Shown here: in pieces, positions 8,929 through 61,919 of the stretch | Position numbering within the stretch: position 1 is the first letter of the stretch | Layout of the letters: each line of letters opens with the position of its first letter | Origin: Neolentinus lepideus HHB14362 ss-1 | Lineage: Eukaryota; Basidiomycota; Agaricomycetes; Gloeophyllales; Gloeophyllaceae | DNA length: 64,000 bases | Reading direction: 5' to 3' | NCBI GenBank assembly: GCA_001632425.1 | Contig: KV425609.1 | Span: forward strand, 16,372-80,371 | The notes under the pieces: generated by a model | Database searches by the model: none | Seen by the model: only the letters and a program-made list of their open reading frames with translations | Told to the model about the DNA's origin: nothing | Translations under genes and position numbers: made by a program

Positions 8929-10314
8929 TTGCTGAACACTATGGAATTCCCATCCGAGCAGACTGCATGGGGTGGTGATGAACCGGCCCAGCAACAGCAG
9001 ATGCCAATGCAGTCCCACAAGCCCAACATCATCGTGGACGCCGTTGAGCAGATGCACAATGTTCATGTGGAACAAGGTAACACAATCGAAGCACTGATGT
9101 CTGAAATACAGGAACTGCACAGTGGAACATGTGAGATGCTCGCAGCAACACATCATGCTGTGACAATCGCCGAGCGCGCTGCCCAAGAGTCAATGAGTGC
9201 TGCGCAACAAGCTCTCAAGGCCGCATGTCAAGCGCTTGAGTGCATGCAGTCTGGTTACTTACCGCAGCCTACTACAGCTACAATGTCTTCCACGCATACC
9301 CTGGCACCTCCTCAGCCTCACCCAGCACCTGTTGCTATGACATACATGGCATCCATCCACTCAGGAACCATGCATTTTGAGAAGCCACACACCTTCACAG
9401 GCAAGGCCGCCGACGTCGAGCCCTTCCTCGATAAGGTTGTGAATGCAATCCTACTCACCAACCCCACTATGCTCCCTACCAACGGCCACTGTGCCGCCTA
9501 TCTACAATCTTTCCTCGGTACTGGTGCCCTGCAATCCTGGTTCACAACTGCTCACAAGTTGAACCCTGCACTGCTCAAAGACTTCGATGCACTCTGCGAA
9601 GACTTCCGTCGCCATTTCAGTGACCTGAACATTGAGAGCAGCATGCTGTACCATATTTGCCAGACCGGGTTGACCACCACATACTCCTTGTGTTTCAAGG
9701 AGCTTCTCACTCATGTCAACATCAAGGAGGCCCACCAGGTCCATCTCTTCAACAATGGTTTACAAGATCGGGTCAAGGACGTCCTCACCACCATCATCGA
9801 CAAACTGGATGGCAAGCAACTGGGTGACTTTGAGAAGTTTGTCTGTCTTTGCATCACTATCGACAACCAACTCCATGAATGCAACCGAGAGAAGAACCAG
9901 TCATCTTCCTCAGGCAAGGAATAAGTCTCCCCATTCTAATGACACTACTTCCTCTTCCTCTACCCCTCGTTCTACTAACTATTGTGGTTCCTCTTCCTCT
10001 AGTGCTCCCGATGCTTCATTGTCTTCATCAATGCTCCCTCCAGGTGCTCCGATGGAGATTGATGCTATGCAGACTCCCTGTGCTCCCCGTGCACCTCTAA
10101 CCGAGGAAGAGAAGGCCCATCACAAACGTGAAGGCCTCTGCGCTTACTGTGGACTCGGGAAGCACTATGTGTCAGACTGTCAGCTTCTGAAGAACTGTAA
10201 CAATCATGGCAATGCCCCTGCATCATTGGGAAAAGCCTGACCGGTTTCCCTTCTGCCTCAGGGCCACCAGTAGACATTATTGAGGTGCATCTTTCTTCTC
10301 TTTCTTTGCCACGC
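8929..10314 (+). pseudogene. gag: gypsy-1 gag (frameshifted, interrupted)
   Basis: A capsid-like gag frame runs from 8929 to 9924. It has a Gln-rich N-terminus, an alanine-rich helical segment (ERAAQESMSAAQQALKAA) and a retrotransposon-gag domain around residues 140-310. The nucleocapsid zinc knuckle CAYCGLGKHYVSDC (CX2CX4HX4C) lies in the next frame at about 10,138-10,182. The frame change falls at GGCAAGGAATAAG (about 9914-9926), where one extra base would explain the switch. After the knuckle, sequence continues to 10,314, where a family-B element is inserted before the protease. Confidence 0.8.
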
Positions 10315-11633
10315 TGATAGGCCCCGTTGGCTTCTGACCCCAGAAAATGTGATTTAGGGCGATTCAGCATGCTTCATGGGAATGGCAACTTAGCGACTCA
10401 ATAGCGCACTGTCAGTACTCTGTGCACTAGCAACCCTATGCCCCAGTGACAAGGCTCTCGGCTCCTCGGTGCACTTAGGATGGCTTCTCAGTAGCTTGGT
10501 TAGTCGAACGTCATTCAGTCGAGTCATTGGCATCTCGGCATGCACTGCCCGATGTTGTTACTGCAGTCTGAACTGAGGTGGTGTCTCAGGGTGCCTTTCA
10601 ATATGGTGTACAGCCCACCGTTGCTTCAGATCAGCACTAGTTCTATTGGTGCAACTTTCCTTATGTGTGCAGTGCACATCGACACATGGCATGACTATGG
10701 CTATCACGACACCACCACACAATATAGCGGCCCCGCCCTTTATCCTTATTCTGGCAAGATTGCGCTAGAGTCAGCAGCATAGCCCGCTGCCTGATCATCA
10801 AGGAGGTGCGCTCTAATGCAAAGTCAAGACACACCCGACTGGCTCCCTCCTGAGGAGCAGCGCACGTGCTAGAGTTGGTCATGAGGGCTATTGGTCAAGG
10901 ATCACATGCGGGATAGGAACGAGGCAGTCAAGTCGTATGGATGTGAGGCTGAGCAGAGGCACAACTCACGGTAGTAGGTAGTTAGGATCAGACATAGAGC
11001 AGTCGCTCTCTTGTATTTAAGACATCACTCTTCTGTTTTGTACAAAAAGTTATCTTCACCACACTCTTCAGATTTCAGTCTCATGTCAGAGTTTTCTTCT
11101 AAGTCCATCTTGCAACTCGCATTTAGGTACTCTTGCATACCTCCAACTTCACCCAGAGATAGCAACAGAGCAAGTCAGTGTAGCATTGCTGATCATAAGC
11201 AAATCCCTTTACAAAGTCTCTCTCTCTTAGGCAGCCTTGTGCACTGCAGCGTCATACTAACCAGCATCTATACATCTGAGTTATAGGTAGTGACCGCAAG
11301 TAGCACTCCCCTGTAGAGCACTGAAGACTGTACAGTGCCAAGCAGGGGAAGTACCATATAGCACCTACACAGCGCCGTGCACATAGCACTACATAGCGCA
11401 TAGCGTCACTCTCTATCATCAGACTGCTGCCGAATAGTGACTTGGTGCCAAACTCCCTTTAGCCCCAACTATACGTCTCACCTACACCCATCCCCTCCAA
11501 ACTATTATTACCCTTCATTACCCCAGGCCTCACAGCCATCTGACACCAAGGGTTTGGTGTTTGCTTTGTGGTTGTGTCTAGCTTTAGGTCTTATTTCTGC
11601 AGGTTTTGTTGTGTGTCAGTGCATATCAGCGCA
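10315..11633 (+). mobile_element. family-B element, complete copy 1 (1.32 kb)
   Basis: Starts TGATAGGCCCCGTTGG and ends GTGCATATCA. The flanking 4-mers are ACGC (10,311-10,314) and GCGC (11,634-11,637), consistent with a GCGC duplication whose left copy lost its first G in a CpG context. Deleting the insert and one 4-mer joins the gypsy-1 frame as ...SLPRKPTF..., which supports the boundaries. A near-complete second copy lies at 32,983-34,297. A TATA-like TTGTATTTAAGAC lies at about 11,012-11,024. There is no significant ORF. It is either a solo LTR of an unseen retrotransposon or a non-autonomous terminal-repeat element. Confidence 0.8.
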
Positions 11634-13710
11634 AGCCTACGTTTATCCATCTAACCAATGGAGTTTATACCCCATACCCAAAACTCGCCCCTCATTATAT
11701 TTTCTCCTCTGCTGCTCCATTCGAGAACTCTCCCAGACACTTTTTCATCTCTATTCACCTCTCATTTCCTAACTGGAAGTCCATTGAGACTTTCACTCTC
11801 ATTGATTGTGGTGTGACTACATCGTGCATCTCCGAGTGCATTGCTACTAATCATTCTCTCCCTCGTACAGTTAAAGATACCCCCATCCTGATCCTCACCA
11901 TCGACGTCTGTCCAATTGCATCTGGGCTGATCACCCATGATGTCATTGTCAACATTGCCATCAATGCACATTCTGAGACACACCCTTTGGCTGTCATATC
12001 TGTTGCTTACCCAGTTATCCTAGGCCTTGATTGGTTGCAACGTCACAATCCCGACATTGATTGGGAGGATGAAACCCTCTTGCTTTCGTGTTGTGAACTA
12101 ACTCGTGCTTATCCTGTTACAGTGAAGGTGAGGTGAAAGGCTCTGGTCTTTGTCCTAAACTCTCTCCTACTACCCTGAACTCCTCATCCTTGCTAGGAAT
12201 AGGCTTTGGTCTCTCCAACACGACTTCTGCTGCTGCGCGTGCCATCTCTATGGTGAAGACTGCAGTCTCCTCAATGCCAGACTCCAAATTGACATGGCCA
12301 TTGTCACCTCTTGACTCTATGTCATCTCCAGAGCAACCAACTTCTCCAGTTTCCACTCCTTCTTTCCTATCTTTGTTTGTTCACTGGGCTGGCTTTGGTC
12401 AATCTACGCCTCCACTACCCTCCTCGGCATTGCCTCCTGATATTAAGGAGGTTGGCCCAAAATGTTTCATGAAATATGCTAAGTCAAATCCTGACTCTAT
12501 TTGTTTCCTCCAATTTCTCCTTGCTGGGACAGCTGCATATATCTGGACTACCACCACGGTTTCTGATATGCTGTCTGATGACCTCAATGATGTTGAGTCA
12601 TCCTCGACAGATACTGACAACCCTCTCGCTTTTATCCTAGACAAGTATATGCCTTGGGCTTCTGCTGTCTTCTTGACTACCGAGTTCGACAAGCTACCTC
12701 CGCATCATCTGTATGATGTGGAGATTGAGCTGGAAGAAGGCAAGACCCCTCCATTTGGCCTGTTGTACCGGCTTATGCCTGCTGAGCATGAAGCACTTGC
12801 AGAGTATGTAAACTCTAATCTTCAGCATGGCCATGTCTGATGTTTGACCTCCTCTGCTGGTGTGCCTGTTCTGTTCATTCACAAGAAGACAGGCGAGCTT
12901 CGACTCTGCATCGACTATAGAGGTTAAAATTCCATTACTAAAAAGAATCGTTATCCACTCCCACTTATTAATGATCTCCTTGATCGCATACAAGGTTGCA
13001 AGGTATTCTCTGTTATTGACCTTAAATCTGCCTATAGCCACGTACACATCAAGGAGGGAGATGAGTGGAAGACTGCATTTTGCACCCCTCTTGGTCTTTT
13101 TGAACATCTTGTTGTTCCTTATGGTTTGGATAACGCCCCTGCGGCATTACAATCCTTTATCCAGGACACTCTTCACAAATTTCTCGATATTTTCTGTGTT
13201 GCTTATCTTGATGATATTTTGATCTTTTCTAGGACTCAGGAGGAGCATGACAAGCACGTTGCACTTATCCTTGATCGCCTTTGGGATGCGCGCCTTTGTG
13301 CCAATCCTAAGAAGTGTGAGTTTGACAAGTCTGAAGTCGAGTATCTGGGCTACATCATCAGTGCTGATGGCATTAAGATGAATCCCCAGAAGCTCAATAC
13401 AATTTCTGACTGGCCTGTGCCTATTTCGGTAAAAGAACTTTAGTCTTTCCTTGGTTTTACTAACTTTTATCATTGCTTTATTGACGGGTACTCCCGTATA
13501 ACGGTCCCGCTCACTAAGCTGACCAAAAAAGACAGTCCTTTTGATTTTACAGTTCCTGCTCTATCTGCATTCAATACGCTTAAGGAGTGCTTCATCTCTG
13601 CTCCTGTTCTCCACCATTTTGACCCCCAACTACCTTGTATGCTCTTGATGGACACCTCTGACTTTGCGCTGTCTGATGTTCACCAGCAATCAGATGATGG
13701 TGGTCAGCCG
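11634..13710 (+). pseudogene. pol: gypsy-1 protease-RT-RNase H (degraded, 3' truncated)
   Basis: The aspartic protease motif is LIDCGVTTSCIS (about 11,799-11,834), followed by the ILGLDWLQRHNP flap-side motif. From 12,133 one frame carries the linker, the RT start (PPHHLYDVEIELEEGKTPPFG), fingers (GELRLCIDYRG), palm (FSVIDLKSAYSHV), catalytic YLDDILIFS (about 13,204-13,230), thumb, and an RNase H start (LLMDTSDFALSDV). Stops interrupt the frame at about 12,838, 12,925 and 13,441. The last sits where SFLGF follows ELQ, so CAG to TAG. The element ends abruptly in RNase H at the foldback junction. Confidence 0.85.
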
Positions 13711-16632
13711 ATGCTGTAGTATTAATGTATTACACCAGCAGTGCATTATGTGTTACACAGTATAGTATTGGGGGCAATGCATTATGCACCTCTGGTGCCC
13801 CGGAAAGGCTCCTACAAGCCAGGCTGGGTTTGAATTGGCATGCCCGGCACCCAGACATTAATGACCCGATCGGGTTTGCATGTCTAGTGTGAGAAGGAGG
13901 CTTCTATATTGGTTTGAGAGGGCCTGGGACCTTGTTTCTGGGCCACAAAAATGCGGAAAAATCATGAAAAATCAGAATATATTGCTGCACCCATTTGGGA
14001 CAGCATCAGTGACAAAAATAGCTCTTGTATGTATATAGAATGCTGCTGAATGGCACTCAGCTGCTCATATAAAATGGCAAAAATTGCCTAAAAATGCAAA
14101 AAAATTCAGGGTAGCTCCTGGGTGCCACCAGGGCCAGATGCCATCATGATATTATGTAATCACCTACCTAGTATGAGCAATATTTGATGTTATACACCTC
14201 TGGAACCCATTTTTCAGCCTCTTTCTGCTGGTGTGGTCCATTTCTCTATCTGGATAAGATTTCTCAGGGCTGTACCACCTCAACCATTAGAGCTACAGAT
14301 ATGGGACTTGTCCCATCTGCTTATATCAGCTACCAGCTATCTATTAGTACCAAAAACTACCAAAACATTTTTTCACGCACCACATTTGAAACACTTTTTC
14401 GTGTTTTCCCACACTAATGCCCATCCCCACAATCTGCCTTTTTGGGAATGGGGTCACCCAATATAGGGCTACAGGTTTGCTTAAGACACCGAGAGATTCT
14501 GATGAGCGGGTGGCTACTTACCGCTTTTGGGTAGTACCCCTCCTGCAGCCTCTCCCCAGCTACCGCTTTTGGTTCTGGTGGTCAATATCACCCCTCCCTA
14601 GTGTATACTAGTATATCAGAACATACCGACCACGTCTGGGATGATTTGGGTCATTAATCAGTGACCCAGTACTGACTGGCCTCAAAAACATACATTTATT
14701 GACACCCTGGTACAGCCAGTACACCTACTGTCAAAGAAACTCTTGGTAATACAACCTACAGTATGCCCCACCAACCCCGGATCCTACCCCAGTCACCCAA
14801 AACCCTACCAAGAACACAAAGAAACAGCAAACAACCACAACCACAGCACACGAGCAGCTGAGCAAAGAAGGCAAAAAAGACCGAAAACAATACGAAAAAC
14901 TCAAACTGGCCACTTCCAGGGGAAAACAGAAACGGGCAGCAATGGAGGTCACAGAGATAAAATCAAGGGTGGATGGGGCATACTGTAGGTTGTGTTACAA
15001 GAAGTTTCTTGGACAGTAGGTGTACTGGCTGTACCAGGGTGTCAATAAATGTATGTTTTTGAGGCCAGTCAGTACTGGGTCACTGATTAATGACCCAAAT
15101 CATCCCAGACTTGGTCGGTATGTTCTGATATACTAGTATACACTAGGGAGGGATGATATTGACCACCAAAACTAAAAGTGGTAGCTGGGGAGAGGCTGCA
15201 GGAGGGGTACTACCCAAAAGCAGTAAGTAGCCACCCACTCATAGAATCTCTTGGTGTCTTAAGCAAACCTGTACCATGGGAGTCCACGATCCGGGACAGA
15301 CTAGGAAGCGGGACACCTCTATATCTTGACAGAGACAGCACCATTCACCAAATCGCTTGGGCGTACCTCGAGCACACCCCCATGGCACCTGACTGTCTGA
15401 TTTTGAAGGGGATTGAGAGAGGAATGGAAGACTGATGGGTTGAGCAAGTTGGGGGACTTTTGGCCTGTGTCGCATGTCTCGATTTGGTGAGACACCCAAT
15501 TTTGCCATTGCTGCTCTTCTCTTGTGTCACCCCTGCTCTTTGTGATACTATGCAAATAAATACTTTTGATATCTGCCTTTCCAATGATACAACTTTTGGA
15601 GAGCTGGAGCTAGGACTGGGAACACTGTAATGATGATAAAAGTGGCCTGGTTCCTAGTCTCAGTGTATATTTGACCTGTCTCGAAACTTTGCATGTAGTT
15701 CTACCATTTTCCAATGAATTTCCTTGATTAGGGTGTCAAAATGTTTACAAGAAAGATCCCTATAAGACTGTATAGTTGCTTCATAGAAATCTGCATGTCT
15801 GCAGGAACTAGAGGAAATATATGCTAGAGTATCCCAGATCTAGACCCCAGACAGTAGCCCTATATTGGGTGACCCCATTCCCAAAAAGGCAGATTGCGGG
15901 GGTGGGTATTAGTGTGGGAAAACACAAAAAAGTGTTTCAAATGTGGTGCATGAAAAAATGTTTTGGGTAGTTTTGGGTACCAATAGATAGCTGGTAGCTG
16001 AAATAAATGGATGGGACAAGTCCCATATCTGTAGCTCTAATGGCTGAGGTGGTACAGCCCTGAGAAATCTCATCCAGGTAGAGAAATGGACCACACCAGC
16101 AGAAAGAGGCTGAAAAATGGGTTCCAGAGGTGTATAACATCAAATATTGCTCATACTAGGTAGGTGATTACATAATATCATGATGGCATCTGGCCCTGGT
16201 GGCACCCAGGAGCTACCCTGAATTTTTTTGCATTTCTAGGCAATTTTTGCCATTTTATATGAGCAGCTAAGTGCCATTTAGCAGCATTCTATATATATAC
16301 AAGAGCTATTTTTGTCACTGATGCTGTCCCAAATGGGTGCAGCGATATATTTTGATTTTTCATGATTTCACTGGATTTTTCTGGGCCAGAAACAAGGTCC
16401 CAGGCCCTCTCAAACCAATATAGAAGCCTCCTTCCCACACTAGACATGCAAACCCAATCGGGATATTAATGTCTGGGTGCCGAGTAGGCCAATTCAAACC
16501 CAGCCCAGCTTGTAGGGGCCTTTCCGGGGCATCGGAGGTGCATAATACATCCCCCCAATACTATACTGTGTAACACATAACGCACTGCTATTATAATGGG
16601 GGTGTAATACATTAATACTACAGCATCGGCTG
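13705..16632. mobile_element. foldback palindrome, 2.9 kb
   Basis: Left arm (13,705 to about 14,775) and right arm (about 14,973-16,632) are reverse complements starting CAGCCGATGCTGTAG at 13,705 and ending CTACAGCATCGGCTG at 16,632. Arms carry GTATTAATGTATTAC-type subterminal palindromes and poly-A-rich stretches. The ~200-bp centre is AC-rich. The right arm carries a 580-bp insertion. No transposase is visible. The left flank is gypsy-1 RNase H and the right flank is a DIRS-like fragment, so the palindrome now bridges two unrelated elements. Truncated relatives are at 6715-7290 and 24,779-25,148. Confidence 0.75.
15274..15853. mobile_element. 580-bp insertion in right foldback arm
   Basis: The right arm reads ...AAGCAAACCTGTA, is interrupted, and resumes GCCCTATATTGGG. 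The left arm has these segments contiguous. GTA flanks both sides (15,271-15,273 and 15,854-15,856), a possible 3-bp duplication. The insert begins CCATGGGAGTCC and ends GACCCCAGACA; I see no terminal repeats or known coding domain. Its type is unresolved. Confidence 0.45.
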
Positions 16633-16743
16633 CGAAGATAGTCCAAACATTACTGCATGGTTGACATACACCTTCCCTCTCCAGAACAAACAAACTGCAT
16701 TCTGATGATCCAGTCGGATTGGGGTTATATGGTAAGCAGCAGA
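16633..16743 (-). pseudogene. DIRS-like reverse transcriptase fragment, downstream part
   Basis: On the minus strand this 111-bp piece continues the reading frame that stops at the Tc1-1 right end (21,956). It encodes a short YNPNPT...VCQPCSNVWTIFAADA stretch in the position where related reverse transcriptases have the segment leading to the GVFG-VAD motif. It is separated from its upstream part by the whole Tc1-1 element. The assignment rests on order and spacing rather than on a catalytic motif. Confidence 0.4.
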
Positions 16744-17103
16744 TACAGTGGCTGCAAAAAGTATCTGGACTGCGGCGCACAAGTTTGTAAAGCTTGGATA
16801 TCTTGCTACTATGGATACATTTTCCTATTATTTCTTTACTATTAGACACTGATATTGGGGGTCAGCAATGCCTGCAAGCAAAATGTCCATGTGACATGTG
16901 AATGTGATGTCACACATGTGGGAAACTCGTGCCACAGCACATCGCCCTAGCTCAATCTCAGGCTGTTTGACATGGAATTGATGTACATATGGTGTGATTA
17001 TAACAATCATTGTAGAGCAGATATATCTATGAAGTGTCTATGAACTTATGTGCTTAAAAAACTTTGTATTTATCGAGAATATTGTTCTAAATTAGATAAA
17101 ATA

Positions 17104-20014: not shown

Positions 20015-20554
20015 GATGAAGAACAGTCCACAAACAGTCAGATAAGCTTAGAATAGCTGTGAAGCTGTCAGAATTGACATGTTCTTCCAAGAATGTGCTG
20101 GAAACACGTTAATAGAATGTGTCTTGGCAAATTCCAGAGGCCCTTTATGACTGCATTTCAGTGAGGTGCAAGTTTCTCAACAGGAACATAACATTAATCC
20201 CTCAAAAAATCTGACTATATTGTTTTGCATGCCACGGAATCGATCGTTGCAGTTCATTTTTTGAATTTCTTCGTCTTTCAAGTAGAAACTGCTATTTCAC
20301 GCAGCAAAATACACACTTAGAGGGCCCAAATCAAAAATCGAATTGCAAGACTCTATTCTATAGTGTTCAAAAGAATATATTCCGATTTTTATTGTAATTT
20401 ACAGTGTGTCTCTGTTCTGAAACTTGCACCACAAGTCACACTCACCTTTGGCTGCAGTGGCTGAAGCGTGACATGCGCATTGGAGTTTCAAACTCATAGG
20501 GATTGCCAACCCCCACTGATATTGTCTCTAAATACTATTGCACCTTGATTGTAC

Positions 20555-22860: not shown

Positions 22861-23454
22861 CTGATTTCACTGGTCCCGGAATCATTTGGATTCGTGATTT
22901 TTAGCTATTTATAGTAGATTTGAGGTGTAACAAACAGATTGGCATGAGCTGATCTTGTATAATTCTGAGTTTGGAGTTTTGGGGCCCAAAATTTTGGCCA
23001 TGACCTCAAAAAAATCGGGAAAAATCCGAAAAATACAGCAAATGACTCCTCTCGCCAATCTCTGTTCAGATCTGACTTAATGATATGATGGCAACAAAAA
23101 TTGAGTGCACTAATAATCATTCCTCATTTTTGGGTAAGTGTGACATAAACTCACTGGAGTGCAGACTAATGAGAGGACAGGATACTCATGTGAGATCTAC
23201 AGCTAATTATCTTAGAAGTTCCCAACTGAATATGTAGCAGGAGGTATGCAGCAATTTCCTACTGTCCATTCTATTCCTGTGATGTAACATGGCCATATCT
23301 CATATGGTTTGCAGTATGTAAGTCTCTTGCATTGCATTACACACAATGCACTGATACTAATGTTTGTCAGAGATACAAGGTGTGTGGTGGTAATTCCTTA
23401 GTACATTAGTTCCCCTTATATTTCTATGTTTTGCAATATAGAGGGTTAGTGGTC
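22861..23454. other. AT-rich non-coding stretch
   Basis: No domain-bearing frame, no repeats shared with the rest of the window and no splice-linked coding blocks seen. It separates the knuckle segment from the repeat-containing frame to the right. Confidence 0.5.
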
Positions 23455-24168
23455 TTAGTTACTCCCAGTAGTCCCAGATATTGAATCAGCTCCATTCTTG
23501 GCTGAATTGGTAGGAGGTTGGTACTCTGAGTGACTTCTTGCAATGCCAGTTGCTGAATCAGCTACCTCCTTGGCTGGATTTGTAGTCTGTGAGTGTTCTG
23601 AGCAACTCCAAGTGGTGCCAGTGGCTGAGTCAGCTCCATCCTTGGCTGAATTTGTAGGAGGTGGGATCTCTGAGTAACTCCCAGTGGTGCCAATTGCTGA
23701 ATCCACTCCATCCATGCCATCCTTGGCCAGATTTGTAGGAGGTGAGTACTCTGATTGATTCCCAGTGATGCCAGTGGCTAAATCAGCTCCATGCATGGTT
23801 GCATTGGTAGCCTGTGAGTCCTTTGAGTGACTCCCAAGTGCACCAGTGGCTGAATCAGCTCCATCCTTGGCTGAAATGGTAGAAGGTGAGTGCCTTAAGT
23901 GACTCCCAGTTGTGCCAGTTGCTAAATTGGCTCTATTTTTAGTTGAATTGGTAGGAGGTGAGTACTTGGAGTGAGTCTTGATGAGACCAGTTGGTGAATC
24001 AGCTACCTGCTTGCCTGAATTTATAGCCTGTAAGTACTCTCAGTGACTCCCAGTAGTGCCAGGCCAACTAGCACATATAGCGCTGTGGACTCTTCAAAGT
24101 CATGATGCACAAGAGCGTCAACCACCTCTTGAATGGCAGTGCAGAGAGGAGCAGTAGAAGACGACGAC
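23455..24168 (-). pseudogene. degenerate gene with 24-residue tandem repeats
   Basis: Minus strand. An ATG at 24,166-24,168 begins MSSSSTAPLCTAIQEVVDAL. It is followed by about 8.5 copies of a 72-bp unit encoding a 24-residue motif close to SPPTNSAKDGADSATGTTGS. Units diverge by substitutions and one is longer by 9 bp (about 23,700-23,712, keeping frame). Two stops interrupt the first repeats. The tandem unit being a multiple of three suggests selection on protein at some time. It could be the N-terminus of the DIRS-like gag lying downstream on the same strand. No function can be named. Confidence 0.45.
23461..24058 (-). repeat. 72-bp tandem repeat, about 8.5 copies
   Basis: Units are marked by CCAGTGGTGCCAGTGGCTGAATC-like starts, about 72 bp apart. 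Divergence between units is substantial, so the array is old. No spacers and no palindromic repeat structure, hence not CRISPR-like. Confidence 0.75.
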
Positions 24169-24282
24169 ATAGCAAAAGCAGAGAAGAGGTGTAGGTGCTG
24201 GGCGATAGGCGATGAGGGGAGCGAAGGAGCAATGTCTAGTGAACTGAGGACAGTTCATTTTTAAAGTCCAGGGGAGGGGGGT

Positions 24283-24778
24283 AGGCCCCATTGGCTTCTG
24301 ACCCCAGAAAATGTGATTTAGGGCGATTCTGCACACTTCGTGGGAACTGTGACTTAGCAACTCAATAGTGCACTGTCGGTGCTCTGCGCACTAGTGACCC
24401 TATGCCCCAGCGATAAGGCTCTCAGCTTCTCAGCACACTTAGGATGGCTTCTCGATGGTGTGGTCAGCCAAACATCATTCAGTTGAGTCATCAGCATCTC
24501 AGCATGCACTGCCCGATGTTGTTACTGTGGACCGAACTGAGACAGTGTCTCAGGGTGCCTTTCCATATGGCATACAGCCCGCCGTTGCTTTGGATCATCG
24601 CTATTCTATTGGTGTGACTTTCCTGATGTGTTGCAGTGTGCATCAACACATGGCATGACTTCAGCTATCACAACACTGCCACACAGTATAGCAGCCCTGC
24701 CCTTTATCCCTCTTCAGCAAGATCACGCTAGCATCAGCAGCATAGCCAGCTGTCTGATCATCAAGGAGGCAGCCCACG
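24283..24778 (+). repeat. family-B element, 5' part only
   Basis: Starts within the terminus (TAGGCCCCATTGGCTTC) and matches 10,319-10,820 of the complete copy. It stops at 24,778 where a foldback arm begins (CTGTAGTAATAATAC). The first TGA of the terminus is lost. Confidence 0.7.
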
Positions 24779-25148
24779 CTGTAGTAATAATACATTATTA
24801 CCCATATGTTACCGTGCCCCATATTACATTAAACAGCGGTAACATACAGGGCTAATGCATTAGATTTCTGGATGTCCTGGAGAGCTGTTGCATGCCAGGC
24901 TGAGCTTGAATATGGCTGCCAGGCATGTCAGGCATGAAGATCCAGATCACATTGGGGTAAAGCATGGGAAAGAGACAGCTATATTTGTCTGTGAGGCCTA
25001 GGGCCTTGGTACTGGGCCGGAAAAATCCGTAAAAAAATCGCAATAAATCAGAATATATTCCTGGACCCATTTGGGACCCCATCCATGCTAAAAATAGCTC
25101 AAGCTATATATAGAATGCTCCATAATGGCACTCAGCTGATCATATAGC
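24779..25148 (+). repeat. foldback-element arm, truncated
   Basis: Begins CTGTAGTAATAATACATTATTAC, the outer end of the 13,705-16,632 palindrome. Continues with diverged arm sequence down to ...CACTCAGCTGATCATATA. Only one arm is present. Confidence 0.6.
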
Positions 25149-25924
25149 GACGTATAGCAATGATAGCGATGATAGCGACACAGTGCTCTTATCGTAGGCA
25201 GGGGGATAGTGACGCAGAGATTGGAGGAAGGATGCAAGATGCAGGAAGCTCAGAGATAGATGCAGGAATGAGATGGGAACACTAGATTGCACAGGGAGGA
25301 CTGACTGGGTTGCCTGTTGCCTGCCTTGTCTGCCTATAGGAGGTCCAACTAAAGTACTCTACTGGGTAAACAAATGAACCAAGAGCCATATGCTAACAAA
25401 ATGAAACTACTCCTGAAACTGATCTATCTCAAACCTCAGACAGGGGGAACAATCTCTGTAAGCTACAGTGTCCATATGCATAGGCCACTGCATACTGAAA
25501 GAAGCATGGGAAAGTGCACAGCATCGCATCAAAAAGCGCTATTGCTCCAGGTGGAGGCTGCACAGGTGCCCGCAATGCATGCACAGCCTCAGAATGACTT
25601 GAGCTTGATAGAGACCACACTGCCGGCCGCAGCTGAAGCAGTGCAACACTGCCACACTATGCCACTTGTTGGAAGGATACCACAGCACCACCGCTATTGT
25701 CAAGATGGGTGCACTCACTTACATAATGCAGTGTAGTGTCTGCTGAACGAGATCAAAGTGTCGAGGAGTGCAGGAAAATAGCTGGAAAAATCAATAAAAA
25801 CTCGAATATTGCTTGTGCCACCAGACTGGGAGCCCTAGCGCTATCGCGTATAGCATGAGAAATAGCGCAAAAGTGCTGAAAATGCGTTTTCTGAGGCTAG
25901 AGACACATAGGGTGCATCAACGGG
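25149..25924. other. no recognisable gene
   Basis: Contains an AGCGAYGATAGCG-rich stretch near 25,150-25,180. A GAAAATGCGTTTTCTGAGGCTAG segment near 25,878 resembles the family-A end sequence. A short plus frame at 25,374-25,736 has no domain I recognise. Confidence 0.45.
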
Positions 25925-26105
25925 CAGCGTTGCATGGCCTGATTAGGTAGCACTTCTCGATTTGGATTTAGCAGAGGCAATCTCTGTAAGTCCTACTTCA
26001 TCAAGTCTCACTCAGCTCATATATGTTCTCTGTATTCAGTATTGGCTCAGGCAACTGTTCAAATGACCAGGAAGCCTCCTCTTTCTCTCTGACCAGCTCG
26101 GGTAG
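25925..26105 (-). repeat. 180-bp repeat, copy 1
   Basis: Nearly identical to 28,926-29,105, including GATTTAGCAGAGGCAATCTC and GACCAGGAAGCCTCCTCTT. In the second copy it overlaps a minus-strand frame (ASWSFEQLPEPILNTEN). Here it abuts the truncated helicase fragment at 26,106. Confidence 0.65.
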
Positions 26106-28330
26106 CCAAACTCAATTGTGTGACAGAAGATAATGCATTTTGGGATATCTTTGGGTTTCTTTGCAGACATGGGGATGGCCCATGCAATGTCATACATGGT
26201 ACTGCTGCTGATGGAATGCTGAAGAAATCATGTAATATACTTAATGTGTGGCCTATCGACAGGAAGTTTGCGGAAGATATACTCGGGCTCTTTGAAGCGA
26301 AGAGAATTCAACATGGTGTAGGGAGATGCACCTGTTGGGGGCATTGCTGTTGTGATTATCCAGCATACATCTGGAGGAAGGCAAGACCGCCATACACTGA
26401 TCTCTTGGTATGCTGATCTGAAGTCCTCTCCATGGTCCTGTACCAGGTGGAACTTGTCCACTCCAAAGAAGCGGATATGGTCCCGGAACACCTTGGTCTG
26501 CATCTTCTTGTTGAGTTCTGGGTGCTTCAACATCTCTGGTGAGACTATGATGAGTTCCCAGAGTCCCTCAGCAACTTCATCAAATGGTTTTCGCTGCGGC
26601 ATCTGGCATGATGCATCTCGCAGAGTATCTGAATTGATTGTGATTGTGCAAAGGCCTCTTTTATTTGCAGCTTTGGCCTTAAATAGAGGTAAGACACAAT
26701 TTGCATGGGAGTTAGATTCCTACTTACCCGGTCTTTGCTCAATGCTTTAGTGGGCACCACGAGAATTGCAAGTCCCTGGTGACAGGCTACAACACACAAC
26801 AACCACCAAAAACACCTAGAAAATGCAGAGGGAACTCCATCTAATAGTGTCAGTAGTCGAAGGGCAGAAAGGTAAAGCTCAGGGGAGGTGAGGGAGGCAA
26901 AACAGAACAATGAATGGCACCGTATATCTCTTGTGAGTAGACCCAGATGCTCTATAACACTCCTAACTCTCTAACTCCCTTGCTCTATGCGTCTCAGCAC
27001 CGACTCAGCGCTTCTCAGAGGGGTTTTGGAGCTGGGCTAGACCAGCTGTCCTCTTGGGGGACTCGGATGATAATCGGACGATAGTTCTATAGGTTCCTCC
27101 ACATCGGAGGACTTTGAGCACACAGTAAGATGGAACACCAGTGCAGAAGACATAGGGAGAATGCAATGGAGATGATAAATGCAGAGATAAATGCAAGACC
27201 TCACACCAAGGTCATCTTAGAATGCAATTTCAGATGCAAGGAGGCTTTGAGATGTGAACTGTGAGGTAAAATTCACTGCTGGAAATGAAAATACAGGACA
27301 CCTAAAGTACTAAGTGACCCTGACATCTAAGAAACTGCTAAGTCCGAGATATCCTAATGCTCCATGCATCTACAATCAGAATATACAACCAAAAGTGTGC
27401 CACCGAGTCTCGCTAAGCTCCCAAGCCACTCACCAATCGTCCACTGCATGCCGCTCTCATTCCAAAGCACTCTAGGTGGGTCAGGAACCTCCATCTCAGG
27501 GAAGATCCTTCCATCTTGAGTCTGTATGGTGCATCGGCACGATTTGACGACTTGTGCTTGATGATAATCGACTCAAACTTCATAAGGAGGGATGACCAAG
27601 TGTTGTGACAGCGCCGGAACAGAATGAGAGGCCCACAGTGTCCTAATGTGCAGTGGCCAATGAGCGCCGAGGTATTGCGAGGTCAAACAGAATGTAAGAT
27701 CAGCTGGTATGCATCAGGAAGGCCGATATGAGTGACTCAGTGTGTATCAGTGCTTGATAGATGCACCGAGTGCTGCCATTCATCGCCATCGTGTTGGTAG
27801 ACTGAGTTCCAGAGGTTTCAAGGATTGTTGTGTCATATGGAAGGGGTATGGTGTTGAGTAAGTGTCGCCAATGCTATCAGTTCCATCTTCCAAGCACATA
27901 AGCAGCATTCAACAACCTCGGAGTATCCTGAGTCATTGAATAGAGTCCACTCCATAGCACCAGCAGGCATGCAGTGTGGCAAAGTGTCTAACCCTCGGTG
28001 GTGATGTCAGTAGCCAGAGGTGCGCGTCCTCGGGGATCACCAATGTATTGGGTTGTAGCCCAGTGAACTCTCGGAGATACATCGGTGGTCTTGGTGCTTT
28101 CTGCACCATGTCGAACACACCGAAAATGTGTTTTCAGAGGCTAGTGACGCTGGAGGCCTATCACCAGCCAAATCACAATCTTGCAGCCATCAACGGGACA
28201 TAAAATAGGGCAGATTTTCCAATTCTGCATGCACCAATAAACATGATGTCCTTGCCTTTAGCCAGATCCATAGATAGCTCTACCTGAAAGTTGTGCAAGC
28301 TGGGGTATTGCAATCCATTGTACTGACCCT
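26106..28330 (-). pseudogene. RecQ-like helicase fragment, split by a family-A insertion
   Basis: Minus strand, two parts. About 28,330-28,164 encodes the entry region (QVELSMDLAKGKD) and the P-loop GACRIGKSALFYVP. After the insert, 26,779-26,106 gives LAILVVPTKALSKDRV (motif Ia), an intron-like gap, SPEMLKHPEL, FGVDKFHLVQDHGEDFR (motif II region), IITTAMPP (motif III region) and a start of helicase domain 2 (KCIIFCHTIEFG). P-loop and DExH are degenerate (GACRIGKS for GxGKS, VDKFH for DExH). RecQ-type helicases unwind DNA 3'-5'. I know many TE-linked RecQ-like copies in Agaricomycetes. It is truncated at 26,106. Confidence 0.7.
26780..28163 (-). mobile_element. family-A element, copy 1 (1,384 bp)
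   Basis: Ends TGACAGGCTAC... and ...AGGCCTATCA on the plus strand. Flanking 4-mers CTGG (26,776-26,779) and CCAG (28,164-28,167) both derive from CCGG by one CpG transition. The uninterrupted duplicate of this helicase site (about 30,586) reads GTCCCTGGCCAAATC. The second copy is at 42,948-44,354. No ORF with a recognisable domain. Reversed, it starts TGATAGGCCTC like family B. Confidence 0.8.
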
Positions 28331-28610
28331 AGTGTGATTGCTTCTGGCTGCACGACATCCTCCATGAGACTTATCTCGATGCAAATATGTGGATTGAAAG
28401 TTCAAGATGTATATCAAGCTAGAACGGGCATGGCTATGACAACAGCGAGAGGCTCTGCAATGAGGAGTTGAGCAAAGACTACCATCTGATCCATATTAGG
28501 CAGCATCTCCTAAATTGGCTGTGACAGAGCACCCAAATAGGATGTGAATGTTGACCTAACATGGTCATGGGGGGACCTCTCTCATGCTGAAACATGAAGT
28601 AAAAGAGTCT
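28331..28610 (-). repeat. helicase-upstream segment, duplicated
   Basis: Matches 30,765-31,045 with few differences (shared CTTCTGGCTGYRCRACATCC and ATGAGGAGTTGAGCAAAG). On the minus strand a spliced or decayed reading is possible (HIFASR, MEDVVQ), continuous with the helicase N-terminus. Both copies end at the same point, so this is the boundary of a duplicated unit or TE. Confidence 0.6.
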
Positions 28611-29209
28611 ACTGCAGCCCGCTTCCAGGGCCTTGCAGCTGGTGCTTTCCTTGGTGAAGGTTCCGATTCCCCTGTCCAATCTTCCCTGAGGTGGTGTGAT
28701 CCACCATTTGAGCATGCATGTCTCCGCTTTGTGCCAGTACACTGTTGTTGGCGGTGTGCCTCTTGCATCTGATGATGACTTTGTCTCTTATGCTGGCTAC
28801 ATTAGACTTGTAAACACGTCTCCTCAATTTGACCGAGTAGGCGAGCAATGGGTCTTCATAGGGAGACTTGTTGCCTTTTAGTTTTGATGTCAGTGAGGTC
28901 CCCTGTGGGAGTCCTGTCACTCAAACGAGCAGTGTTGCATGGCCCGATTAGGTAGAACTTCTCAATTTGGATTTAGCAGAGGCAATCTCTGTAAGTCCTA
29001 CTTCATCGAGTCTCGCTCGGCTTATACATGTTCTCTGTATTCAGTATTGGCTCAGGCAACTGTTCAAATGACCAGGAAGCCTCCTCTTGCTCTCTGACCA
29101 GCTCGCCTTTAAACTCCTTGCCTGAGCTTGACTCTGTTTTGATACTGTTCTCTAGACCATTCATCCTGTACACACCAACACATCTTGACAGTACTTGCAA
29201 TGTAGACAC
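28611..29209 (-). pseudogene. unknown repeated gene, copy 2
   Basis: Minus-strand frames MSTLQVLSRCVGVYRMNGLEN...EASWSFEQLPEPILNTENMYK (29,209-29,003) and TGLPQGTSLTSKLKGNKSPYE (about 28,920-28,800), separated by an intron-like 100 bp. The second half recurs at 7645-7956 and the middle at 25,925-26,105. Three partial copies in one window argue for a mobile or repeated origin. No domain recognised. Confidence 0.4.
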
Positions 29210-29312
29210 AGGTCTCAGAATTTGACCATATAGTGACTCTAGAAGTTATCAAAAAACTATATCTCCGGACTCTAGCTCTGCATCTCCCTTAGAAAGCCCA
29301 GCACCATCAATT

Positions 29313-30221
29313 GTGGGCTTTGTCTCCTACAACAAGACTACATTTGACGCACCTGTTGTGGATACATCAGAAGATGATGCTGTCTCATTCAGAATGGTTA
29401 ATCCCTCACGGTTTCTTCCCTATGAACCCAGGTCACCCCCAACTTCTGAGTCAGTGGGTCTGCCCTGTATGGACCATAGGTCAAGCTCAGACTCTAGCTT
29501 GGGCAGTCCATTCACATTCATACATCACCGGCCTGGGACTCCAATGGATACAGATGATATGCTGGAGAACTCTCAGTCAGCAGCTGTCCAACTCAGCAAT
29601 GCAAGCCCAAATTCCCATGATGAATCTTTCGAAGCAACAACCTTATCCTTGTCAGAGTCTGATTCTCATGGGTGTGCTGTTCACAGCCCTTTGAACCCCA
29701 TGGTCACAACACCCATTATCAATTGGACTCACATTGGCAGCACAACAAGATCTGTGCATCGGACAACCGAGCAACGTGTGTCAGAGGTGCTGAAAGCGAT
29801 GAAGGCAGCCAAATTTGGCTCACTGGGAGACTTTCTGGTAACACTGTTCAATCCTGAGGCTGACTACACAATGGACCAAGTCATCTATCAGGCACTATCA
29901 GCTTTCTTGACTGGTTGCGGTGCTCCCGGCTTGAGACCAGCTGCGATTATACAGTCTATCTATGACCATCCAAAAAGTTGGAAGACTTGTGATAAGTTTG
30001 TGGCTGATATCCATATGGTGGTTCCCACTTATGCACGCTCTCTGGGTGAAGATGCTTATCCGGAATCGATCAATGAGCTTCCAAGTTCCTTGAGTCCTGC
30101 AACTGTTGGTGCTCATGATGCTCTCCGTCAATGGGCTGTTGATTGTGTCATAGACATAGTTGATTGGGAAGCAAATTTACTCACTGAAGCTGATGTTTTT
30201 CGCAATCTCTTGGTATGCTAA
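29313..30221 (+). pseudogene. hypothetical TE-associated protein, N-terminal part, fused to helicase debris
   Basis: A long open frame with a Ser-rich, acidic first 150 residues followed by a helical segment (RVSEVLKAMKAAKFGSLGDFLVTLF, YQALSAFLTGCGAPGLRPAAII). The pattern resembles the N-terminal half of abundant Agaricomycete proteins that carry DUF6589, but the diagnostic domain is not present, so this is tentative. The frame ends at 30,215-30,221 where sequence becomes the reverse-strand helicase fragment (TTGGTATGCTAATCTGAAG). The gene is therefore truncated and chimeric. Confidence 0.4.
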
Positions 30222-31050
30222 TCTGAAGTCCTCTCCATGGTCCTGTACTAGATGGAACTTGTCCACTCCAAAGAAGTGGATACAGTCCTGGAACACCTTG
30301 GTCTGCATCTTCTTGTTGAGCTCCGGGTGCTTCAACATCTCTGGTGAGACTATGATGAGTTCCCAGAGTCCCTTGGCAACTTCATCAAATGGTTTTCACC
30401 GTGGCATCTGGCATGATGCATCTCGCAGAGTATCCAAATTGATTGTGATTGCACAAAGGCCTCTTCTATTTGCAGCTTTGGCCTTAAATAGAGGTAAGAC
30501 ACAATTTGCATGGGAGTTAGATTCCTACTTACCTGGTCTTTGCTCAATGCTTTAGTAGGCACCACGAGAATTGCAAGTCCCTGGCCAAATCGCAATCTTG
30601 CAGCCATCAACGGGACATAAAATAGGGCAGATTTTCCGATTCTGCATGCACCAATAAACACAATGTCCTTCCCTTTAGCCAGATCCATAGATAGCTCTAC
30701 CTGAAACTCATGCAAGCTGGGGTATTGCAATTCTCAGCGGACTACTTCTTGATACCATTGTACTGACCCTAGCGCGATTGCTTCTGGCTGTGCAACATCC
30801 TCCATGAGACTTATCTCGATGCAAATATGTGGATTGAAAGTTCAAGATGTATATCAAGCTAGAACAGGCATGGCTACGACAACAGCGAGAGGCTCTGCAA
30901 TGAGGAGTTGAGCAAAGACTACCATCTGATCCATATTAGGCAGCATCTCCTAAATTGGCTGTGACAGAGCACCCAAATAGGATGTGAACATTGACCTAAC
31001 ATGGTCATGGGGGGACCTCTCTCACGCTGAAACATAAAGTAAAATAGCCT
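30215..31050 (-). pseudogene. RecQ-like helicase fragment, second copy
   Basis: Reads on the minus strand LHEFQVELSMDLAKGKDIVF, GACRIGKSALFYVPLMAARL, LAILVVPTKALSKDQV and, after an intron-like gap, SPEMLKHPELNKKMQ. It is the uninterrupted counterpart of the 26,106-28,330 copy and serves as its empty site for family A. It is truncated at 30,215. Its upstream 280 bp are duplicated with 28,331-28,610. Confidence 0.7.
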
Positions 31051-31419
31051 AGGCTACATTGCACCTGAACAATTTCATGAAGTTTTAAAGCAACATTGCA
31101 GGCCTGCCTATTGACCAGAGAATTTGAGTTTCAACTGGTTAATATCCACACCTGTTACTCATACCCATACAGACCAAACATTGCAGCAATATCTATGTTG
31201 TGCCACATCATGAAAAGCCTCCCACACAAATTTTGTCTAATTTTCTTGAGTCTGTACATAATTCAGATAATGCCAACAATCCAGGCTAACTGGCAAAAAT
31301 TTGTGATAGTTAGCAAAACATCTGATTTCCTATATGTTATTAGCAATAGAACGATCACACCAACATAACAAAATTATGATGGTCCAAGAACAGATTCACA
31401 AAGAATGCTGGGGCATCAT
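31051..31419. other. no recognisable gene
   Basis: AT-rich sequence with a short plus frame at 31,096-31,368 lacking any family feature. Confidence 0.45.
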
Positions 31420-31818
31420 CTAAAACACTGCTACTAGTCCATTCCTGAGGTACCACTGGTCCGAACTTAGGGAAGAGATGGACACTTTGATAAATCTGGG
31501 AAACGGGGATGACACTAGCCAATCTCTGACCATCTCAAATAGATCGCGTAATCTTACTGCTGTTTTTGGAATGTAAGGCATGGCGCGACTTTTCACACGC
31601 AAAACAGCCTCGAGACTAGAAAAATCTACAGCAGCCGTTACAGCACTTGTACCTACATAGAAAATTGTACACATTATCTGAATATATGAAAGAAAATTCT
31701 GACAGTGAAAGAACAGGAGAAATCCCACTAACAATAAATGCTGCATGAGGGTGCGCATTTTCACACATTTTGGCCTGCAGAAAGCCAGTGCTTCGATGCA
31801 GGGACCTGTCGCACTCAC
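31420..31818 (-). CDS. possible exon of an unknown gene
   Basis: A minus-strand open segment. A plausible 3' splice site (TTCTATGTAG before GTACAAGTG, about 31,655) precedes a 75-residue reading TSAVTAAVDFSSLEAVL...KTAVRLRDLFEMVRDWL. No domain recognised and no partner exon certain. It lies just left of the Tc1-2 element and could be a TE remnant. Confidence 0.2.
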   Translation of the reverse strand: MSATGPCIEALAFCRPKCVKMRTLMQHLLLVGFLLFFHCQNFLSYIQIMCTIFYVGTSAVTAAVDFSSLEAVLRVKSRAMPYIPKTAVRLRDLFEMVRDWLVSSPFPRFIKVSISSLSSDQWYLRNGLVAVF

Positions 31819-32176
31819 AAAGACATGGTAATATGTCTAGCAATTGGTAAAAAAAATCCTGGGGTCAACAGTACACTTCCTGTATCTTGAAAGCTGTGAC
31901 ATCCTGCTGAGGAGGTATTTTACTTTACTGCACTGTAGAAAATCAGCACAGCTTTCTATTCATCCCGGATTTTGAGAAACATATATACATGTATGTATAC
32001 AACCATATAAAAATTCTGCTATGCTCCCTGATGCACAGAAGGTGCCTACCATCCATCCGCACCTCCCATCCCACTTTGCGCCACACCTGTGTGACTCATT
32101 AGGATGTGTGATGTCACATGTACCCTCTGTGTTGTACAAGCAATAGTATCTACACTTCCAACACACATCTCTCCAA

Positions 32177-34648
32177 ATGTCAGACATAGAGACACCCTCC
32201 GAGACTGCACTGGAACAAAGAGATGACTTGCATACACTTGATCGCTCTTCAGCACTGCCTGAGGAAGCTGAGGTCCAGATCACAGAGGAACCTCCTGCAA
32301 AGAAGAAGTGCAGCTGTCCTCCGAAGCAGCAAGCATGGGGTTCTTCAAAATCATCAGGGAAAATGACCCAAGAGGCAGAGTCACCACCTGCAGCCACAGT
32401 GAAGTGCTTGTTCAGGAGTAAGTCACATCATTCAGTCTTGCTGAGATAAAGGATACCACTGAAGTCACTCACACAGAGATCATCTTGAATATTCCATCAG
32501 GAAATGGTGCTGAGGGACTATCGGAAAGGGTCCAGGTAGATTACGATGAATCATTCAATGAAGTCATTGCTGTCATCCATCAGACAATGGGGTGTTCTGA
32601 TACCATACTAAAGCCGCTGCTGCAATACAAACTGTCCAATAAGCCCAAAAATGCACAGAAGTTTGCACTTACACAGGAATCAGATTGGGTGCTCCTTGTG
32701 TGCGATCTAGAGAGTGCCAAGAGGCAGAAGAAGCAGCCGATCCCCATGGATATCTTTACAACTGATCAGGTAAGCCCATGTCCATATGTAAATCTGCCAC
32801 TAATGATACAGATCACTTCCAAGAGTTTCACAGAGACTCACCTCATCCTCAATTCAAGGAAGAATCTATGACCTCGATGCAGCCCGCTGCTCCATTGAAT
32901 CCACCAACAGGGCCTTATACACCGCCCTACATGCCTACTCCATCGCCATTGCCATATCCTGTACATCCAGGTTTTGACCCGTTGATAGGCCCCATTGGCT
33001 TCTGACCCCAGAAAACACAATTTAGGGTGATTCTGTGCACTTCATGGGAACGGTGATTAGCAACTCAATAGTGCACTGTCAGTACTCTGCACACTAGTGA
33101 CCCTATGCCCCAGCGACAAGGCTCTCAGCTCCTCGGTGCACTTAGGGCGGCTCCTCGGTAGCTCAGTCGGTTGAATGTCATTCAGTCAAGTCATCGGCAT
33201 TTTGGCATGCGTCGGCCGGCATTGTTACTATGGTCTGAACCAAGGGATGTCTCAGGGCACCTTTCCATATAGCATACAGCCTGCTGTTGCTTCAGATCAG
33301 TGCTAGTTCTATTGGCATGACTTTCCTTATGCGTGCAGTGTGCATCAACACATGGCGCGACTACGGCTATCATGACACTGCCACACCACAGAGTGGCCCC
33401 ACCCTTTATCCCTCTTTCGACAGGATCACGCTAGTATCAGCAGCATAGCCCACCCACAGATCATCGAAGAGGCACGCTCTAATGCAAAGTCAAGACACAC
33501 CTGACTGGCTCCCATCTGTGGAACAGCACGTGTGCTAGAGTTGGTCACAAGGGGTACTGGTCGAGGAGTGCATGCAGATTAGGAGCAAGGCAGTACAAGT
33601 CATATGGATGTGAGGCTGAGCAGAGGCACAACTCGCGGTAGTAGGTAGATAGGATCAGACATAGAGCAGTCACTCTCTTGTATTTAAGCCATTACTCTAC
33701 TGTTTATACAACAAGTTATCTTCACCACACTCTTCAGATTTCAGTCTCACATCAGAGTTTCTTCTAAGTCCGTCTTGCGACCCACGTTTAGGTACTCTTG
33801 TGTACCTCTGACTTCACCCAGAGATAGTGACAGAGTACACCAGCGTAGTGTCACTGTTCATAAGCAATCCCCTATAAGTCCCTTCCTCCTAGACAGCCCT
33901 GTGCGCTGTAGCATAGTGCTAACCAGAGTCAGTACATTTCTGAGTTAGAGATAGCGACTACAAGTAGCACTCCTCTATAGAGCATTGAAGACCATACAGC
34001 GCTGAGTAGGAGGAGCATCATATAGCGCCTACACAGTGCCATGCACATAGCGCTACATAGCGCATAGCATCACCTTCTATCCTCAGACTGCCACCAAGTA
34101 GCGACTTGGTGCCAACCTCCCTTTAGCCCCAACTATACATCTCACCAACACCCGTCCCCTATGAACTATATTACCCTTCATTACCCCGGGCCTCGCAGCC
34201 ATCTGACACCAAGGGTTTTGGTGTTTGCTTTGTGGTTGTGTCTACACTTTAGGTCTCACTTCCGCAGGTTTCATTGTGTGTCTTTGCATATCACCATACT
34301 TCCCTTACCAGCATCCATATGGTCTACCTGTTCCCAGGCCATTGTTGAGTGGTGACCTACCCAGCAGTGATCCCCCTGAGATCACTGAAATGGAATGGCC
34401 ATCAATAACTTCATTCCTCCAAAAGCTTGACATGGCTGCTCCACAATGTCGATTGGGTCAGGTGATGCATTCTTTTGTAGCGAAAGACTTCTACAACATT
34501 GATGAGCTCTAGGACTTCTCGGCAAAAGATCTGCAATCCGAGTTTAATCTGACCTCTAGGAATGCCAAGTTCATTCACGACGAGCTGAAGAAAGTCTTTG
34601 GATCTACCACCAAAGCAAGGAAAGTGAAGCATGTGCGACTTGGCTAGT
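32177..34648 (+). pseudogene. accessory protein of Tc1-2 with C-terminal SAM-like helical domain
   Basis: Blocks: MSDIETPSETALEQ with a Lys/Pro-rich linker (32,177-32,420); AEIKDTTEVTHTEIILNIPSG...DYDESFNEVIAVIHQTMGC...LLQYKLSNKPKNA...ESDW (32,440-32,770); an intron 32,770-32,811 (GTAAGC...TACAG); a Pro-rich linker; then, after the family-B insertion, EMEWPSITSFLQKLDMAAP...FVAKDFYNIDEL and FNLTSRNAKFIHDELKK (34,385-34,648). I recall this block order from an unnamed multicopy Agaricomycete family. The last block has the look of a SAM-type bundle. One-base frameshifts near 32,432 and 32,840 and a TAG at about 34,510 make it inactive. Role in transposition unknown. Confidence 0.55.
32983..34297 (+). 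mobile_element. family-B element, complete copy 2 (1,315 bp)
   Basis: Starts TGATAGGCCCCATTGG at 32,983 and ends TTGCATATCA. Flanks are CCGT (32,979-32,982) and CCAT (right side), a CCGT duplication with one CpG transition. Removing the insert and one 4-mer joins the host reading as GFDPYFPYQHPYG in frame, confirming the ends to the base. It shares TATA-like CTTGTATTTAAGCC near 33,680 with copy 1. No domain-bearing ORF. Confidence 0.85.
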
Positions 34649-48447: not shown

Positions 48448-48461
48448 TGATTTGAGTCGCC

Positions 48462-49641: not shown

Positions 49642-49690
49642 GCCTAGACTTGAGAGAAGTCAGCGTATGGTGAAGAAGAGATCAACCTAA

Positions 49691-60462: not shown

Positions 60463-61919
<1,457 letters not shown>

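What the first reader, a model, noticed from the sequence alone, without database searches (positions are those of the whole stretch)
10311..34301. Two related TE families always insert at NCGN, duplicating 4 bp around a CpG
Family A: TCGG (42,944) and CCGG (26,776, now CTGG/CCAG). Family B: GCGC (10,311, now ACGC/GCGC) and CCGT (32,979, now CCGT/CCAT); a fifth truncated site is YCGT (7645). All five have CG in the middle, and every mismatch is a CpG transition. In a CpG-poor region this is unlikely by chance. It suggests an integrase or transposase that targets CpG, perhaps methylated CpG in silenced TEs. I know no fungal TE described with this rule.
Basis: partly seen in the sequence, partly recalled or inferred. 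Interest (0 to 1): 0.85.

Follow-up and report, generated by a model that had tools for sequence, protein, structure and literature searches.

The report
Mushroom retrotransposons that insert at CpG
Two related families of retrovirus-like jumping genes in a wood-rotting mushroom insert almost without exception so that a CG step sits at the exact centre of the cut, a strict targeting rule I did not find described for fungal elements.

Summary
Both families are LTRs (TG...CA, 1.3-1.4 kb, mostly solo) of a non-chromodomain Ty3/Gypsy lineage in Neolentinus lepideus. I examined 117 genome copies; 98 have two intact outer ends. Of their 196 flanking 4-mers, 114 have CG in the centre, 81 have TG or CA (one CpG transition away, 40:41) and 1 has TA. 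In 86 of 98 copies both flanks trace to one NCGN 4-mer by CpG transitions alone; exact duplications of 3-8 bp occur at 4 bp only, 39 of 98. CG is 2.8% of nearby dinucleotides. The 21 least decayed of 49 LTRs all keep CG on at least one side. A chromodomain Gypsy family in the same genome makes 5-bp duplications (7 of 9). The full motif, A-N-[V-CG-B]-N, is the prototype foamy virus consensus with its central YR narrowed to CG. Best reading: the element's integrase, PFV/Ty3-like, needs CG at the intasome two-fold axis. Whether it reads 5-methyl-CpG is untested. One CG-centred precedent exists outside fungi (Ginger1, CCGG/CCGT), so this is a new, unusually strict variant of a known kind.

The parts
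10311..10314 (.). target duplication, left copy, ACGC (from GCGC)
10315..11628 (+). family B solo LTR (TGATAGGCC...CATATCA)
11629..11632 (.). target duplication, right copy, GCGC
32979..32982 (.). target duplication, left copy, CCGT
32983..34293 (+). family B solo LTR
34294..34297 (.). target duplication, right copy, CCAT (CpG transition of CCGT)
26776..26779 (.). target duplication, left copy, CTGG
26780..28163 (-). family A solo LTR, older copy
28164..28167 (.). target duplication, right copy, CCAG
30581..30584 (.). empty (pre-integration) relative of the 26776 site, single CTGG
42944..42947 (.). target duplication, left copy, TCGG, inside a chromodomain Gypsy element
42948..44354 (-). family A solo LTR, younger copy
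44355..44358 (.). target duplication, right copy, TCGG
7506..7645 (+). 5'-truncated family B LTR end
7646..7649 (.). CCGT after the truncated B end
24282..24771 (+). truncated family B 3' LTR, preceded by a polypurine tract (AGGGGAGGGG)
41485..50212 (-). control: chromodomain Gypsy element with LTRs about 41485-42006 and 49691-50212 and 5-bp duplication TCGAA

Best explanation
Families A and B are LTRs of one Ty3/Gypsy-type retrotransposon lineage without a chromodomain. Its integrase joins the two cDNA ends to phosphates 4 bp apart, and the target must have a CG step at the centre of the stagger, on the two-fold axis of the intasome. Shown: LTR anatomy, the 4-bp stagger, the CG centre and decay of the duplicated copies by CpG transition. 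Inferred: direct recognition by the integrase. As in the foamy virus intasome, the central pyrimidine-purine step is probably unstacked to bend the target, and here CG alone, rather than any YR step, is well accepted. The weaker V...B and outer A preferences match the same geometry. Later CpG deamination turns many target CGs into TG or CA. The rule lets the element land in CpG-bearing DNA, including other transposons; targeting of methylated CpG is possible but unproven.
For: LTR nature: TG...CA ends; PBS-like TTTTGGAGCCCA after 5' LTRs and a purine tract before 3' LTRs in both families. A complete B-type element with two LTRs lies at C108 (outer flanks GCGG/GTGG). The interior of a second one (C8) encodes RNase H and H2C2 integrase domains; its right end reads N. 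Rule: 195 of 196 ends CG/TG/CA; outer bases equal in 81 of 98 against a shuffle mean of 9.6, maximum 20. At other offsets in the flanks CG occurs in 0-9 of 98. CpG decay: TG 40, CA 41; pair classes fit independent decay (CG/CG 28, mixed 38, double 14). In the 49 copies whose LTR sequence I held, decayed ends track LTR CpG loss, Spearman -0.59, p 9e-6, with no double decay in the 21 least decayed. Empty sites: of 4 distinct relatives of the L014 site (CCAC/CTGC), 3 read CCGC and 1 CTGC. Motif: T just 5' of CG in 9 of 160 vs 29.7% background, p 5e-14; A two bases outside in 71 of 160, p 2e-7. PFV consensus is KWK/VYRBMWM (the slash marks the joining site) with a 4-bp stagger (PMC4422553, passages). 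Closest solved relatives: Ty3 and PFV integrase. Same-genome control: 5-bp duplications in 7 of 9 chromodomain Gypsy insertions.
Against: 12 of 98 pairs do not reconcile to one 4-mer. Double-decayed pairs lean to identical rather than opposite outcomes, 11:3, p 0.057, so a minority of true TG/CA targets (estimate 7.5%, interval 0-17%) is possible. 3 of the 7 control 5-mers also contain a CG, though at varying positions of a 5-bp duplication; the control set is small. The sample is the best-scoring part of each family (40 of 268 B candidates scored in each; 40 of 147 and 40 of 144 A candidates), and from one genome. Family A's own integrase is tied to its LTR at one locus only (C58). No biochemistry. 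The structure model is of a relative, of moderate confidence (pLDDT 69.5), and says nothing about CG contacts.
Confidence: 0.82

Rival explanations
1. The integrase, or a host factor bound to it, recognises 5-methyl-CpG, so the element homes to silenced, methylated repeats and the CG rule is a by-product of methylation reading.
For: Targets often lie in CpG-depleted DNA (18 of the 49 copies with held flanks below 0.4 observed/expected) and inside other transposons. C5-methyltransferase matches exist in the genome.
Against: A tether would give regional preference, not base-exact centring. 6 of 49 flanks have CpG observed/expected above 0.8, so they were probably not long methylated. No methyl-CpG reader or chromodomain was found in the integrase lineage. 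Retroviral integration is reported as disfavoured in CpG-methylated regions (PMC3185549, passages). Selection against genic insertions also explains the repeat bias.
Confidence: 0.12
2. The integrase accepts any flexible pyrimidine-purine step (CG, TG, CA) with CG merely favoured.
For: 11 TG/TG or CA/CA pairs against 3 TG/CA pairs. Retroviral integrases with 4-bp staggers choose a central YR in general (PMC4422553, passages).
Against: Only 1 of 196 ends has TA. The 21 least decayed LTRs of 49 all keep CG on at least one side, 13 on both. Pair classes fit decay from CG alone. TG+CA are six times commoner than CG in the flanks.
Confidence: 0.12
3. The pattern is a chance or alignment artefact, or the CG belongs to the element end rather than the target.
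For: None found; only five sites were known at first.
Against: Outer bases of the 4-mer vary between insertions but match across each insertion; empty relatives carry the 4-mer once.
Confidence: 0.01
4. These are not LTRs but terminal-inverted-repeat DNA transposons of Ginger type, which also make CG-centred 4-bp duplications.
For: Ginger1 target duplications are CCGG or CCGT/ACGG (PMC2836005, passages). The termini are partly inverted (TGATAGGCC / TGAYAGGC).
Against: PBS-like and polypurine junctions, an element with two LTRs, and an RNase H-integrase pol.
Confidence: 0.02

Closest known systems
Non-chromodomain Ty3/Gypsy pol lineage of mushrooms (database relatives named from Mycena, Heterobasidion, Armillaria, Grifola)
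   Same: RNase H - H2C2 integrase pol; 49-70% identity in the 120 best of 665 matches listed.
   Different: No target rule for this lineage turned up in my searches; whether the relatives share it could not be tested (the one scan for related contigs found none).
Prototype foamy virus intasome
   Same: 4-bp stagger; V-YR-B core with W two bases outside (PMC4422553, passages); first-ranked fold in the PDB search, although with low global TM-score (0.25).
   Different: PFV accepts YR weakly; here the centre is essentially CG only. Not a retrovirus.
Ginger1 DNA transposons
   Same: Gypsy-like integrase; CG-centred 4-bp duplications, CCGG 75%, CCGT/ACGG 24% (PMC2836005, passages).
   Different: TIR DNA transposon of animals; outer bases nearly fixed, whereas here CCGC, ACGC, ACGT, GCGC, CCGA and ACGA also occur.
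Drosophila errantiviruses of the ZAM group
   Same: LTR element with a CG-rich palindromic target, CGCG (PMC5408687, passages).
   Different: If CGCG is the duplicated 4-mer its centre is GC, not CG; those elements have AGT/AnT ends, here TG...CA. The review calls sequence-specific integration exclusive to errantiviruses and their derivatives.
Plant LTR elements with 4-bp duplications
   Different: Described there as a composition bias, not a strict CG rule.

Membership tests
LTR retrotransposon | TG...CA LTRs with target duplication | tested here: met
LTR retrotransposon | PBS after the 5' LTR and polypurine tract before the 3' LTR | tested here: met
   the tRNA was not identified
Ty3/Gypsy (Metaviridae) | pol order RT - RNase H - integrase | tested here: met
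   RNase H_2 precedes H2C2 integrase; RT recognised by eye in the translation, Pfam RVT_1 gives no match for L069; a profile of relatives matches Ty3 pol 7q5b
Chromovirus | chromodomain at the integrase C-terminus | tested here: not met
   the control family in the window has one
Ginger1 | terminal inverted repeats of about 40-270 bp, no RT | tested here: not met
Ginger1 | CCGG or CCGT/ACGG duplication | tested here: not met
   19 of 80 matched sites are CCGG or ACGG/CCGT, 61 are other NCGN
ZAM-group errantivirus | AGT/AnT termini | tested here: not met
   TGA.../...TCA
ZAM-group errantivirus | CGCG target | tested here: not met
   no centre is GC in 196 ends
PFV-like target geometry | 4-bp stagger, V-YR-B core, W two bases outside | tested here: met
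   against PMC4422553 (passages); A two bases outside is clear, T is not enriched; works like it, not a member
Methyl-CpG-directed integration | use of methylated over unmethylated CpG | not testable with these tools
   no methylome available

The most novel reading that the evidence does not exclude
The integrase itself distinguishes 5-methyl-CpG at its two-fold axis, making this a retrotransposon that uses the host silencing mark as its landing signal and inserts into already silenced repeats.
Probability: 0.12. Interest if true: 0.88.

Novelty: new variant of a known kind. Interest (0 to 1): 0.63.

Why it matters
Retroviruses with 4-bp staggers show only weak target consensus (PMC4422553, passages). 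A TG...CA Gypsy element with a near-absolute dinucleotide requirement offers a clean system for asking how an intasome reads the central step. It would extend sequence-specific integration beyond errantiviruses. Because CpG is also the methylation site, it makes a link between transposon landing and the silencing mark directly testable with bisulfite data and an in vitro assay. The rule also gives a practical genome-wide signature for finding such insertions.

Tried and rejected
Considered and dropped: chance, alignment artefact, TIR DNA transposon, generic YR preference (see rivals). rve (PF00665) matches were used first to find the element's integrase, but none of the 75 lies at the eight B-type integrase loci of 83-100% identity and at least 535 residues found later. 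A scan of viral contigs for relatives confirmed none, so the rule could not be tested in a second genome. Literature searches for a fungal CpG-targeting LTR element gave no such report in the listings (one search returned no paper); the library holds open-licence papers only. I saw passages of PMC5408687, PMC4422553, PMC2836005, PMC6911290, PMC7862722, PMC5381629, PMC3185549 and PMC4911145, and search listings of the rest. Whether family A codes for the 64-68% integrase matches at C58, C40, C20 and C12 is supported at C58 only.

Rows dropped before counts: 19 of 117 copies (8 unclear or N ends, 11 with an internal PBS or polypurine side). Partial matches were mostly not fetched. Of 9 control insertions, 2 (C41, C31) lacked a matching duplication. 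In one search the window control prints a match of 6 because my right flank began one base early; one search shows TCGAA on both sides.
Full report
What is there. The window lies in a 33.8-Mb, 168-contig genome. A coilin-like gene in the window is 100% identical, over 70% of the query, to a protein of Neolentinus lepideus HHB14362 ss-1 whose contig length (208,419) equals that of this contig, so the host is that mushroom (a brown-rot fungus, recalled). The window is CpG-poor except at its genic right end (observed/expected 0.17-0.65, then 1.03). Read in LTR orientation most copies of both start TGATAGGCC and end in TATCA or TGTCA.

They are LTRs. In some copies of both families one end is followed by TTTTGGAGCCCA (a primer-binding-site-like sequence) or preceded by a purine tract. 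Internal searches find elements with both inner junctions about 8.7 kb apart at C8 and C108; C108 has both LTRs and outer flanks GCGG/GTGG, while the right end of C8 reads N. The C8 interior encodes RT-like motifs (by eye), RNase H_2 and an H2C2 integrase, with no chromodomain. Of 665 related database proteins the 120 best are 49-70% identical; the few with organism names are mushrooms. A scan of 32 of them finds H2C2 in 31, rve in 9, and no chromodomain or methyl-CpG reader. A profile of them matches Ty3 pol and PFV integrase in the PDB. A model of a 70%-identical relative (pLDDT 69.5) matches PFV intasomes, then Ty3; the global TM-scores are low (0.25), so domain arrangement is not modelled reliably.

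The rule. I examined 117 copies: 60 loci, 2 further window copies, and 55 pairs of ends. I dropped 19. In the 98 left, the centre of the flanking 4-mer is CG in 114 of 196 ends, CA in 41, TG in 40 and TA in 1. Both copies go back to one NCGN 4-mer by CpG transitions alone in 86 of 98; five of these need a CpG that crosses the edge of the duplication, including the window copy at 10311. Among lengths 3-8, exact duplications occur at length 4 only (39 of 98). The outer two bases agree in 81 of 98 against a shuffle mean of 9.6. CG is 2.8% of flank dinucleotides.

CG or any flexible step? TG and CA are equally frequent, as strand-symmetric decay predicts. Numbers of undecayed, half-decayed and doubly decayed pairs (28, 38, 14 of 80) fit independent decay at 41% per end. 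Decayed ends rise with CpG loss of the LTR itself (Spearman -0.59, n = 49, p 9e-6), and none of the 21 least decayed LTRs has lost both CGs. Against this, identical double decay outnumbers opposite double decay 11:3 (p 0.057); a fraction of true TG/CA targets of 7.5% (0-17%) is the best fit. One such case, L030, sits in a place of the A LTR where, in the part of the output shown, most relatives also read CTGG and one reads CCAG.

Finer motif. T is depleted just 5' of the CG (9 of 160, background 29.7%) and A is favoured two bases outside the duplication (71 of 160); other positions are nearly flat. This is the PFV consensus KWK/VYRBMWM (slash: joining site; PMC4422553, passages) with YR narrowed to CG.

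Control. A chromodomain Gypsy family in the same window and genome gives 5-bp duplications in 7 of 9 insertions (GTYGC, CTTGC, TCGAC, GATAA, ACACA, CTCAT, TCGAA); 2 have none. Three of the seven contain a CG somewhere, so the control shows a different stagger and no fixed CG, not an absence of CG. The strict rule belongs to the A/B lineage.

Mechanism. Base-exact centring on the two-fold axis argues for recognition by the integrase at strand transfer rather than by a tether. In the PFV complex the central dinucleotide is unstacked by a sharp bend (PMC4422553, passages). I infer the same here, with CG as the only well-accepted step. Methylation reading remains possible: C5-methyltransferase matches are present, sampled basidiomycetes methylate mainly CG (PMC7862722, passages), and 18 of 49 insertion flanks are strongly CpG-depleted. 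But 6 of 49 flanks are CpG-rich, and selection against genic insertions would give the same bias.

Novelty. A CG-centred 4-bp duplication is known for Ginger1 transposons (PMC2836005, passages). The ZAM group of Drosophila targets CGCG (PMC5408687, passages), which is CG-rich but has a GC centre if that is the duplicated 4-mer; plant 4-bp duplications are GC-rich in the centre (PMC6911290, passages). I found no report of a CG-centred rule for fungal LTR elements. It is a new, unusually strict variant of a known kind.

Noticed in passing
window 23455-24039 (-), and L018, L028, L035 upstream of 3' LTRs: The C8 B-type element has about 2.5 kb between the end of the integrase frame and the 3' LTR side; this part holds antisense open frames (119-194 aa in these four places) and, in the window copy, a 72-bp tandem repeat; whether they are genes is unknown.
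   Followed up: partly
G000:C62:119625-128543: An apparently complete A-type element (GCGG on both sides) with a 6.15-kb interior gave no match to the B integrase, so it may be non-autonomous or deleted.
   Followed up: partly
12 of 98 copies, e.g. L029, L037, L062: LTRs whose two flanks come from different NCGN-type 4-mers, as recombination between elements at different sites would give.
   Followed up: partly
C40:259960, C20:409449, C58:183208, C12:219215; C59:104730, C30:352688: Further integrase relatives, mostly at 64-68% and 48-58% identity, whose LTRs and target sites were not examined, C58 apart.
   Followed up: no
window 36541-38027 and 50808-52294: A 1487-bp inverted pair that is 99.8% identical (Copia gag region), next to a run of N that ends at 36540: a recent duplication or an assembly effect.
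   Followed up: no
window 1-56000 against 56001-64000: CpG observed/expected is 1.03 at the genic end and 0.17-0.65 in the repeats; integrase frames carry many in-frame TGA stops, which fits CpG-directed hypermutation.
   Followed up: partly
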